Assembly (NCBI GenBank): GCA_026929865.2
Contig: CM049395.1
Location: 17,751,001 to 17,815,000 of the forward strand
DNA from: Hyperoplus lanceolatus
Taxonomy: Eukaryota; Chordata; Actinopteri; Uranoscopiformes; Ammodytidae
Direction of reading: 5' to 3'
Length of the DNA stretch: 64,000 bases
Under the pieces are notes generated by a model. That model ran no database searches. It was not told where the DNA came from and saw nothing but the letters and a program-made list of their open reading frames with translations. Within the stretch, counting starts at the first letter, position 1. Each line of letters opens with the position of its first letter. Shown in pieces: positions 39,061-53,316 of this stretch. The position numbers and the translations under genes are program-made.

Positions 39061-39311
39061 CCCACTCCCGAGACTCCTAACCGCTCCCAACGGCACTGAT
39101 TTTGAATACAAGGAAGGCGTGCGAGAGACGGATCCAAACCTCTCTAGACTAACGAAGCAAGCAGCACAAAAGAGACTACACTCTCCAGGTAGCCTATTAC
39201 TGATCAACTGTCTATCTATGAAAAAATTACAATAATGAGAAAAGAGCAGGGCTAATGGAGTTGTAGTTTTCCTATAAAGTTAATATGCTGTTGTGTACGA
39301 CGCTGAAGTTG

Positions 39312-40548
39312 AGAGGCACCTATTTGCAGACCCATGGGGGAAACCATTGAAAGTGGAGCTCCACCGGAAGCCACGCCCCGAACTTATTTCATTGGTCAGA
39401 ATTGTAACCTACTCTGAATTTGTTGTCTTCTTTTTGTTTTACTGCCAGAGTTCACCTGGCGGTGAATAATAATACACAGTTTCCACCGGTTATGATGCTA
39501 GTAAACAGTAAAATACGTCAGTTTGTTAAGGGTCCCAAGTGGTCAGGACGGTGGTAAAAAGTAGATGTTGAGGTAGAAGATGAATGAAGCAACGAAGCTT
39601 TGGGTACATCTTCCGAAATCCGTCTCTTTAATTCACAATTATCACAAGTAGGTCAATCACATACAAATATCAACTCTCATAAATAAAACACAAAAAGTTG
39701 AACTTTTATCTTAGAAGTCCTGGAAACAAATGCTTGTCTTTTCCTCTTAAACTGTGCTAACTGTGTTCGGATTAATAAACCTATTGTATTGTAGCCTATC
39801 TCATTCTGTGGCTGCACGCGATCGTTACTGTTCACTTGCGTGATCAAAAAGTCACAGACGAGCCTCGTTAAATAGCCTAATATGAACATAGGCTATTTAT
39901 GTCTGGTTGAAATGTAATTCTGCGGCTGCACACGATTGTTACGTTCATTTGCGTGATCACAAAGTCACAGACGAGCATCGATCGTGCAATAGCCTAATAT
40001 GAATATAGAAATGATATAATAGCCTAATTAAAACTGTGATCACTAGAGGACAAGGGATCTGGTAATAAATCAATCAGGATCTAGAATGGAAACTGTCACC
40101 TTATATGTCAGACGTTAATGCCTTTCACCCCGCTTTTTAAAATGAGCTGTTTATTTTAATGTGGTGGCACTTTTTGTGTTTCATTTATAAAAGTTTATAT
40201 TTGTATGTGATTGACCTAGTGTGATAATTGTGAATTAAAGAGACGGATTTTAGAAGATTTACACAAAGCTTCGTTGCTTCATTCATCTTCTACCTTAACA
40301 TTTTACCACCGTCCTGGCCACGTGGGACCCTTAACAAACTGACGTATTTTACTGTGTACTAGCACCATAACCGGTGGAAACTGTGTATTATTATTCACCG
40401 CTGGGTGAACTCCGGCAGTAAAACAAAAAGAAGACAACAAATTCAGAGTAGGTTACAATTCTGACCAATGAAATGAGTTCGGGGCGTGGCTTCCGGTGGA
40501 GCTCCACTTTCAATGGTTTCCCCCATGGGTCTGCAAATAGGTACTCTT
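39312..40548. mobile_element. Long-TIR element inside the left arm, TSD GCTGAAGTTG
   Basis: The exact 10-bp repeat GCTGAAGTTG flanks it (39302-39311 and 40549-40558) and is part of the foldback terminus. The ends AGAGGCACCTATTTGCAG and the complement of AGAGTACCTATTTGCAG begin inverted repeats of about 340 bp. The centre holds a tandem duplication of about 95 bp (near 39800-39897 and 39916-40009, sharing AGTCACAGACGAGC). Long TIRs with a 9-10 bp duplication suggest a Mutator-like MITE; no transposase is present. Confidence 0.8.
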
Positions 40549-40613
40549 GCTGAAGTTGGCAGCTGATTCTTAGCAGCCGATTCGGCAGTTAAGGAAAAGT
40601 TAAGGGATTCTTA

Positions 40614-51400: not shown

Positions 51401-53063
51401 ATAGCCTCACTGTGATATTCTAGTCCAGATTCCAAGAGTCTAGGTGCAGTGGTTTTCAATCAGGACCAGTTCTAATGCGGTCTGGACCCCAAAAAAGCGT
51501 TGACATGTGCCTTTATTTAATTTTCACAAATAGAAAAACAGTTTCACAAATCAAAAACTATGTTTTCCATAATCTACAGCCTCGCTGTGATAATCTAGTC
51601 CAGATTTCAAGAGTCTAGGTGCAGTGGTTTTCAATCAGGACCAGTTCTAATGCGTCCTAGACCCCTAAAAACCATTAAAATGTGCATTCTTTGCATTTTC
51701 ACAAATAGAAAAAAAAATTCACAAATCAGAAACTATGTTTTCTATAATCTATAGCCTCTCTGTGATAATCTAGTCCAGATTTGAAGAGTCTAGGTGCAGT
51801 GGTTTTAAATCAGGACCAGTTCTAATGCGGTCTGGACCCCAAAAAAGCGTTGACATGTGCCTTTATTGCATTTTCACAGATAGGATAAAAGTTTCACAAA
51901 TCAGAAACTATGTTTTCTATAATGTATAGCCTCACTGTGATATTCTAGTCCAGATTTGAAGAGTCTAGGTGCAGTGGTTTTCAATCAGGACCAGTTCTAA
52001 TGCGGTCTGGACCCCTAAACACCATTAAAATGTGCATTCTTTGCATTTTCACAAATAGAAAAAATGTTTCACAAATCAGAAACTATGTTTTCTATAGTCT
52101 ATATTCTCACTGTGATATTCTAGTCCAGATTTGAAGAGTCTAGGTGCAGTGGTTTTCAATCAGGAACAGTTCTAATGCGGTCTGTACTCCAAAAAAACAT
52201 TAAAATGTGCATTCTATGCATTTTCACAAATAGAAAAAAAGTTTCACAAATCAGAAACTATGTTTTCTATAATGTATAGCCTCACTGTGATATTCTAATC
52301 CAGATTTGAAGAGTCTAGGTGCAGTGGTTTTCAATCAGGACCAGTTCTAATGTGGTCTGGACCCCAAAAAAACCTTGACATGTGCCTTTATTGCATTTTC
52401 CCAAATAGATAAAAAGTTTCACAAATCAGAAACTATGTTTTCTATAATCTATAGCCTCACTGTAATATTCTAGTCCAGATTTGAAGAGTCTAGGTGCAGT
52501 GGTTTTCAATCAGGACCAGTTCTAATGCGGTCTGGACCCCAAAAAAGCATTGACATGTGCCTTTATTGCATTTTCACAGATAGGATAAAAGTTTCACAAA
52601 TCAGAAACTATGTTTTCCATAATGTATAGCCTAACTGTGATATTCTAGTCCAGATTTGAAGAGTCTAGGTGCAGTGGTTTTCAATCAGGACCAGTTCTAA
52701 TGCGGTCTAGACCCCAAAAAAGCGTTGACATGTGCCTTTATTTAATTTTCACAAATAGAAAAACAGTTTCACAAATCAAAAACTATGTTTTCCATAATCT
52801 ATAGCCTCGCTGTGATAATCTAGTCCAGATTTCAAGAGTCTAGGTGCAATGGTTTTCAATCAGGACCAGTTCTAATGCGGCCTAGACCCCTAAAAACCAT
52901 TAAAATGTGCATTCTTTGCATTTTAACAAATAGAAAAAAAGTTTCACAAATCAGAAACTATGTTTTCTATAATCTATAGCCTCTCTGTGATAATCTAGTC
53001 CAGATTTGAAGAGTCTAGGTGCAGTGGTTTTCAAACAGGACCAGTTCTAATGTGGTCCAGATG
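48480..53063 (-). repeat. 175-bp satellite, right array, about 27 inverted copies
   Basis: This is the same satellite as the left array but in opposite orientation. The anchor GTTCTAATGCGGTCTGGACC recurs every 175 bp with almost no drift (near 48505, 48680, 48855, 49030 and on to about 53050). Variants differ mainly in the segments around TTGACATGTGCC versus TAAAATGTGCATTC. Longer blocks are repeated (the AGCTGCAATGG variant at about 48990 and 51265, 13 units apart). No open frame is maintained. Confidence 0.95.
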
Positions 53064-53316
53064 CAAAAAAAAGCAGTGAAATCTCCCCCCTCTTTCTTTT
53101 AAACAAGCTTAATAAAGGTTACATCAATTGTAAACTGTTTTTAAAGAATGGTTAGACTCTCTTAGATAATCTAGACTAATTAATGTGGCTTTACCGTGGC
53201 GATTTGGGAGGTTAAACAACGGAGAATCAGTCGCTCCGCAGCTCCTTAAGAATCCCTTAACTTTTCCTTAACTGCCGAATCGGCTGCTGCGAATCAGCTA
53301 CCAACTTCAGCGTCGT
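53064..53316. repeat. Right unique terminus of the foldback element
   Basis: Its inverted copy is split on the left among 39297-39311, 40549-40613 and 41123-41305. It shares TAGATAATCTAGACTAATTA, GAGAATCAGTCGC, CTGCCGAATCGGCTGCT and the end CCAACTTCAGCGTCGT. Unlike the left arm it is uninterrupted. Confidence 0.85.

What the first reader, a model, noticed from the sequence alone, without database searches (positions are those of the whole stretch)
39297..53316. 14 kb foldback-like element whose arms are inverted arrays of a 175-bp satellite
Seen: matching unique termini (about 280 bp), the same satellite in opposite orientation on each side, and flanking 9-mers CTGTTGTGT/CTGTTACGT. Known: Drosophila FB elements and some Mutator-like elements have tandem-repeat inverted ends and 9-bp duplications. 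Inference: this fish family may be a vertebrate foldback element that carries and spreads a satellite. I recognise no named family with these ends.
Basis: partly seen in the sequence, partly recalled or inferred. Interest (0 to 1): 0.85.

Follow-up and report, generated by a model that had tools for sequence, protein, structure and literature searches.

The report
Jumping gene with inverted satellite arms
This is one copy of a family of jumping DNA elements, probably in a fish, whose two arms are mirror-image arrays of a 175-base satellite, so the satellite is carried to new chromosomal sites each time the element moves.

Summary
The element spans 39297-53316; its left terminus is split by two later insertions. 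Its own flanking 9-mers match 7 of 9, but the family settles the point. In the window's genome (806.7 Mb) a terminus 26-mer occurs 158 times (reversed control 0). Of the 100 sites listed, 70 form 35 inward-facing pairs (0.12 by chance). Of 44 pairs read, 27 have a perfect 9-bp duplication and 38 match at 7 or more; swapped flanks give 0 and 5 of 1892. Three of 14 insertions tested have a related uninserted site. All 20 large loci fetched have satellite beside the terminus, from under one unit to about 44 per arm. Units resemble those on the same side of the core in other elements (236.1 of 254), mainly in the young subfamily, so arrays travel with transposition and change by block duplication. 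The terminus is homologous to the satellite unit. A neutrally decaying fragment resembling a DIRS retrotransposon is in 17 of 20 loci. No transposase of its own was found; a Mutator-type enzyme is likely but unproven. It works like Drosophila Tetris and FB.

The parts
39288..39296 (.). left copy of the 9-bp target duplication, CTGTTGTGT
   Evidence: 7 of 9 against the right copy; in the family 27 of 44 pairs perfect
39297..39311 (+). outermost part of the left terminus (ACGACGCTGAAGTTG)
39312..40548 (.). nested element with ~380-bp inverted ends (93.4% identical), inserted in the left terminus; 10-bp duplication GCTGAAGTTG at 39302-39311 and 40549-40558
40549..40616 (+). second piece of the left terminus
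   Evidence: 66 matches, 2 mismatches to the side-A terminus of L033
40617..41125 (.). 509-bp insert with a short open frame (40842-41165) that resembles a Harbinger-type protein by recall only
   Evidence: no Pfam match over a cut-off
41126..41294 (+). inner part of the left (side A) terminus, homologous to the satellite unit
41295..44682 (+). left arm array, 19.4 copies of the 175-bp unit, with recent block duplications (copies identical or one base apart)
44683..47429 (+). core: fragment resembling a DIRS-type retrotransposon (end of reverse transcriptase, RNase H, tyrosine recombinase), frame broken, neutrally evolving passenger
   Evidence: the name DIRS is recalled
47430..48293 (-). Tc1-like copy inside the core (ends approximate); also in L032-L037, mostly deleted in L031
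48294..48479 (.). end of the core; includes a tail also found at 13730-13836 and 19040-19120
48480..53057 (-). right arm array, 26.2 copies of the 175-bp unit in opposite orientation
53071..53316 (-). right (side B) terminus, 246 bp
   Evidence: 40 scored copies at 96-100% identity
53317..53325 (.). right copy of the 9-bp target duplication, CTGTTACGT

Best explanation
It is one copy of a foldback-type DNA transposon family that inserts into new sites with a 9-bp target duplication. Shown: defined 246-bp inverted ends, 9-bp duplications, related uninserted sites, many copies, and inverted arrays of a 175-bp unit inside the ends. Shown, mainly in the young subfamily: the arrays are carried along when the element moves and are then reshaped by block duplications and deletions inside each arm. 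Shown: the unit and the terminus share ancestry. Inferred: the satellite arose when part of the terminus was repeated in tandem. Inferred: the copies seen are non-autonomous and are moved in trans by a transposase coded elsewhere, most likely of the Mutator superfamily, which would bind the ends and perhaps the related repeats. The retrotransposon-like core is cargo.
For: 158 terminus sites, 0 in the reversed control. 35 inward-facing pairs among the 100 sites listed, 0.12 expected. 44 pairs: 27 perfect 9-mers, 7 at 8/9, 4 at 7/9, 6 lower; swapped-flank control 0 of 1892 perfect and 5 of 1892 at 7 or more. Related empty sites for 3 of 14 elements tested: L047 against window 8859-9098 (97.5%, target once), L032 against L044 (79.9%), L045 against window 26326-26464 (73%, weaker). 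All 20 loci have satellite next to the terminus. The nearest unit of another element lies on the same side of the core for 236.1 of 254, against 126.8 when sides are flipped at random (1 of 500 as high). Side-A ends of L031, L032 and L033 show no substitutions while sides A and B differ by ~6%, so one master with unequal ends spread recently. Block duplication: side A reads GHINJRGHIGHINJRDUK here and GHINDJRDK in L032. Terminus against unit: z 6.6 to 8.9, 0 of 500 shuffles. Core is neutral: singleton sites 23/35/24 by codon position, synonymous fraction 0.223 against 0.267 expected.
Against: No transposase of its own was found in any copy read. All 8 Mutator-domain places lie 675 kb or more from the listed terminus sites, though 58 of the 158 sites were not listed. 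The one Mutator gene read (L051) has different candidate ends. Six of the 44 pairs lack a good duplication. The window copy's own duplication is 7 of 9, although its ends are close to relatives (side B 0.4%; side A 4 of 244 mismatched). L038 and L042 showed no mate within the 10 kb fetched; the listing shows none for L038 and does not reach L042's contig. Side tracking is not seen outside the young subfamily: 4 of 10 side-A arms (L041, L043, L047, L050) are closest to a side-B arm.
Confidence: 0.87

Rival explanations
1. The family is moved by a transposase of another superfamily that also leaves long duplications (Merlin, P, hAT or a new one).
For: No transposase of its own was found. Foldback shape arises in other superfamilies too: Galileo is P-like (PMC3688188, abstract). 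The Mutator gene at L051 has other candidate ends. My scans for two other transposase families did not complete.
Against: The duplication is 9 bp; no pair was perfect at 7, 8 or 10 bp. That fits Mutator (8-11 bp, PMC6446971, passages) better than hAT or P (8 bp, recalled). Mutator transposases exist in this genome.
Confidence: 0.28
2. Two inverted blocks of an ordinary satellite that meet at a repeat-rich place, with chance 9-mers.
For: The window's own 9-mers match only 7 of 9.
Against: 158 terminus sites, inward-facing pairs, perfect 9-mers in 27 of 44 pairs, and related empty sites.
Confidence: 0.01
3. The tyrosine recombinase of the retrotransposon-like core moves the element.
For: The same core junction occurs at 45 places, and 17 of 20 fetched loci hold the core or a remnant.
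Against: The frame evolves neutrally and is broken in the young copies. L039 has only a 117-bp core and a perfect duplication. A second core type, non-coding where sampled, lies in C1:30731378, C3:28462496 and C10:21028570, all with perfect 9-bp duplications. Tyrosine recombinases are not known to leave 9-bp duplications (recalled).
Confidence: 0.02
4. A Helitron-like element with internal satellite arrays.
For: Helitrons often carry tandem repeats (PMC12628747, passages).
Against: Helitrons lack inverted ends and target duplications (recalled); here both are present.
Confidence: 0.01

Closest known systems
Tetris (Drosophila virilis foldback element, PMC4079207; outline, section 10 and part 1 of section 16 read)
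   Same: Inverted ends made of an outer domain and tandem units; the unit shares a stretch with the outer domain (37 bp there); 8-10 bp duplications; no autonomous copy found; array length varies.
   Different: Insect; ~220-bp unit, three complete copies described, and long satellite-like arrays of up to 66 copies. Here probably a fish, 175-bp unit, 44 paired copies checked, about 44 units in the longest arm, and a retrotransposon-like cargo.
FB (foldback) elements of Drosophila melanogaster
   Same: Long inverted ends with tandem repeats and 9-bp duplications (recalled).
   Different: FB units are much shorter (recalled); sequence relation not tested.
Tm1 (Mutator/Foldback family of root-knot nematodes, PMC3169594; outline with abstract and section 9 read)
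   Same: Composite inverted ends with variable numbers of repeats, 9-bp duplications, different cargos between the ends.
   Different: Units of mostly 14 bp; a Phantom-like transposase is known there, none here.
Galileo (P superfamily, PMC3688188; outline with abstract read)
   Same: Foldback-like, tandem repeats inside long ends; there the repeats hold transposase binding sites.
   Different: P superfamily; binding to the repeats not tested here.
Rehavkus (Mutator relatives, PMC6446971; passages read)
   Same: 9-bp duplications and a minisatellite near one end.
   Different: Described there for arthropods and annelids; minisatellite before the 3' end only.
Xmix / Xstir of Xenopus (PMC9659126 and PMC12628747; passages read)
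   Same: A vertebrate case of a satellite tied to transposon ends.
   Different: A small MITE; the passages do not describe paired inverted arrays.

Membership tests
Foldback-type (FB/Tetris-like) DNA transposon | Inverted ends that contain tandem repeats of variable number | tested here: met
Foldback-type (FB/Tetris-like) DNA transposon | Target duplication of about 9 bp | tested here: met
   27 of 44 pairs perfect, 38 of 44 at 7 or more of 9
Foldback-type (FB/Tetris-like) DNA transposon | Many dispersed copies | tested here: met
   158 terminus sites
Foldback-type (FB/Tetris-like) DNA transposon | Empty target sites | tested here: met
   related uninserted sites for 3 of 14 elements tested, one at 97.5%; other individuals were not available
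Mutator superfamily (MULE) | 8-11 bp target duplication | tested here: met
   range from PMC6446971
Mutator superfamily (MULE) | MULE transposase coded by, or matched to, these ends | tested here: inconclusive
   8 Mutator-domain places, none near the 100 terminus sites listed; 58 sites not listed; L051 has other candidate ends
Tetris family proper | Sequence homology to Tetris | not tested
   no Tetris sequence was fetched
Helitron | No inverted ends and no target duplication (recalled) | tested here: not met
DIRS / Crypton (tyrosine recombinase elements) | Functional recombinase under selection | tested here: not met
   neutral pattern, and stops in the young copies

The most novel reading that the evidence does not exclude
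A vertebrate foldback transposon whose 175-bp arm unit grew out of its own end and works as a reservoir of transposase binding sites. Arms lengthen by block duplication between jumps, and the long-armed lineage, loaded with a retrotransposon fragment, is the one that spread most recently. It would be a live satellite factory that plants inverted satellite arrays in gene-rich DNA.
Probability: 0.35. Interest if true: 0.75.

Novelty: new variant of a known kind. Interest (0 to 1): 0.62.

Why it matters
How satellites reach scattered places outside heterochromatin is an old question. Here the carrier, its ends, its insertion scars and the pedigree of single monomers can be read in one genome, so array growth can be timed against transposition. 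Kilobase inverted arrays near a gene (a GFOD1-like exon ends 4.3 kb from this copy) are expected to be fragile and to invite rearrangement, which can be tested. The closest foldback precedents I found are in insects and nematodes. Five literature searches listed no vertebrate foldback element of this build; three of those lists were capped (20 of 52, 12 of 76, 12 of 54 papers shown), and most subscription papers and Repbase were not searchable.

Tried and rejected
Transposase hunt: Pfam PF10551 over the genome gave 8 places (27 candidates scored), none near the listed termini. L051 was read: a 430-aa frame with FLYWCH and MULE domains, but other candidate ends. Open frames of at least 130 aa in the 20 large loci showed retrotransposon-like frames and an inserted piggyBac, and no Mutator protein that I recognised; part of that output was cut, and of those loci only 5 frames were scanned with Pfam. 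Centre probes of 6 of the 15 pairs without the satellite/core junction: one held the retrotransposon-like core, one satellite, three (C1, C3, C10) a second core type, one (C9) matched nothing held; further probes of C1 and C10 showed no long open frame outside simple repeats, with about 0.6 kb of the C10 core unread. Scans for PF12762 and PF20700, a genome count of the satellite unit, a count of the core, a search with the second core and a test for a vertebrate marker (PF03089) did not complete, so how much 175-bp satellite lies outside elements is unknown. Origin gradient: units near the outer end are only slightly closer to the terminus (rho -0.20, units not independent), so the direction from terminus to satellite is inferred. 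Left and right copy numbers are correlated (rho 0.67, 11 elements), not followed up. The terminus string was not found in the paper library. Rejected: ordinary satellite inversion, Helitron, recombinase-driven mobility (see rivals).

Full report
What is in the window. Both ends read ACGACGCTGAAGTTG inward, and the two sides stop matching exactly there. Inside each end comes a tandem array of a 175-bp unit, 19.4 copies on the left and 26.2 on the right, in opposite orientation. The arms match over 3,569 aligned columns at 90.7%. The left terminus is broken by two later insertions: a 1.24-kb element with its own inverted ends and a perfect 10-bp duplication, and a 509-bp piece. Between the arrays lie 3.8 kb that hold a fragment resembling a DIRS-type retrotransposon and a Tc1-like copy. 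The name DIRS is recalled; Pfam gave only matches below its cut-offs (RT_RNaseH E 0.0023, phage integrase SAM-like E 0.25). The Tc1-like piece has helix-turn-helix matches just below the cut-offs.

The terminus is related to the satellite. About 90 bp of the inner terminus aligns to the 175-bp unit; 0 of 500 dinucleotide shuffles scored as well on either side (z 6.6 to 8.9), and the reverse complement scores like the shuffles. Tetris of Drosophila virilis has the same feature over 37 bp (PMC4079207, section 16).

It is a family. In the window's own genome (806.7 Mb, 527 contigs) the 246-bp terminus gave 194 first-look candidates; the 40 that were scored match at 96-100%. A 26-mer of the end occurs 158 times with up to two mismatches, and its reversed control 0 times. 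The listing showed 100 sites, all without mismatch. They form 35 inward-facing pairs within 16 kb, 1.1 to 14.4 kb long with a median of 7.3 kb; random placement gives 0.12 pairs.

It inserts with a 9-bp duplication. I read the flanks of 44 pairs: all 35 and nine more, the window included. Twenty-seven are perfect over nine bases, seven match at 8, four at 7 (the window among them), and six lower. Pairing the left flank of one copy with the right flank of another gave 0 perfect and 5 at 7 or more out of 1892. No pair was perfect at 7, 8 or 10 bases. Two of the copies, on C6, share their flanks and look like one insertion duplicated with its surroundings, so they are not independent. I joined the flanks of 14 elements and compared them with the sequence held. 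Three sit in repeats of which an uninserted relative is held: for L047 it is window 8859-9098, 97.5% identical, with the target AAATAAGTG once; for L032 it is in L044 at 79.9%, target 8 of 9; for L045 it is a weaker match at window 26326-26464.

The satellite travels inside it. All 20 loci have satellite next to the terminus, from under one unit (L045) to about 44 in one arm (L035) (its counts include about 0.6 unit of terminus homology per arm). I cut 262 units from 24 arms of 14 elements. The closest relative of a unit lies only in another element for 175, ties between another element and the same arm for 43, only in the same arm for 41, and in the opposite arm of the same element for 3. Among 254 units whose side of the core is known, the closest unit of another element lies on the same side for 236.1; flipping sides at random gives 126.8 with a standard deviation of 21.6, and 1 of 500 flips reached the observed value. 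So arrays are copied with the element and the two arms rarely exchange units. This holds mainly in the young subfamily: compared arm by arm, all 12 side-B arms are closest to a side-B arm, but 4 of 10 side-A arms (L041, L043, L047, L050, outside that subfamily) are also closest to a side-B arm. Within an arm the arrays change by blocks: side A reads GHINJRGHIGHINJRDUK in the window, GHINDJRDK in L032 and GHINDJRDUDUK in L033, letters standing for unit types. In the window these blocks are identical or one base apart.

The window copy belongs to a young subfamily. The side-A ends of L031, L032 and L033 show no substitutions, nor do the side-B ends of L031 and L032, yet A and B differ by about 6% in each (gaps not counted). 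One master whose ends had already diverged must have spread recently. The Tc1-like copy in the core is shared by L032-L037, as far as each was read, and is mostly deleted in L031.

The core is cargo. The junction between satellite and retrotransposon-like fragment occurs at 45 places (control 0), inside 20 of the 35 pairs. The fragment or a remnant is in 17 of the 20 large loci. Its longest frame shows no sign of selection: singleton changes fall 23/35/24 on the three codon positions and the synonymous fraction is 0.223 against 0.267 expected. Three other pairs (C1, C3, C10) share a second core, 99.5% and 100% identical in two stretches of about 200 bp and 87% in a third of 87 bp, without long open frames outside simple repeats where sampled.

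What moves it. No copy read here codes for a recognised transposase of its own; the Tc1-like and piggyBac pieces are insertions. The genome holds 8 Mutator-domain places; none lies near the 100 listed ends, but 58 ends were not listed. One such gene (L051) has FLYWCH and MULE domains and other candidate ends. The 9-bp duplication and the foldback build point to the Mutator superfamily, as the authors argued for Tetris and as supported for Tm1 by a Phantom-like transposase (PMC3169594, abstract). I put this at about 0.6 to 0.7.

How it compares. In build it works like Tetris and FB. Membership of the foldback type is met on the four features tested. Membership of Mutator is met on duplication length and open on the enzyme. 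Sequence relation to Tetris was not tested. In the passages I saw, reviews of satellites from transposons name Tetris as the foldback case and a Xenopus MITE among vertebrate DNA transposons (PMC9659126, PMC12628747), and a review of fish mobile elements does not use the word foldback in its main text (PMC7599744). That the host is a fish is recalled, not tested; the neighbouring gene matches GFOD1 (E 1e-105).

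Noticed in passing
window 31677-32130, minus strand: Fragment of eukaryotic 18S rRNA (190.6 bits) between the two exons of the GFOD1-like gene.
   Followed up: no
window 31007-31303 and 34059-34997: Exons of a GFOD1-like oxidoreductase gene, ending 4.3 kb from the element.
   Followed up: partly
window 39312-40548: Nested element with ~380-bp inverted ends and a perfect 10-bp duplication; perhaps another Mutator-like element.
   Followed up: partly
window 6688-9098: Direct repeat of about 950 bp (89%) whose relative elsewhere hosts the insertion L047.
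   Followed up: partly
L045:4923-9056: PiggyBac-type element (Pfam E 2.5e-43) splits the terminus; the two terminus pieces overlap by four bases that read TTAA (and window sequence).
   Followed up: partly
L051:1726-3015, minus strand: 430-aa frame with FLYWCH and MULE domains; candidate ends GGCTTTTCCGCTCGCTTGTC about 3.1 kb apart.
   Followed up: partly
L107, L109, L112-L114, L118, L119: Second core type, rich in CA and TA repeats, in three copies on C1, C3 and C10.
   Followed up: partly
L038:1-3094 and L046:5651-8719: Another shared 3.1-kb stretch at 98.4%, with frames that look like a second retrotransposon of the same type.
   Followed up: no
G000 C6:3472112 and C6:3512791: Two copies 40 kb apart with the same flanks, probably one insertion duplicated with its surroundings.
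   Followed up: no
L041, L043, L047, L050: In these older copies side-A arms are closest to side-B arms of others, as if the sides were alike before the young subfamily arose.
   Followed up: no
window 60220-60611: Short tandem array of a 217-bp unit (1.8 copies).
   Followed up: no
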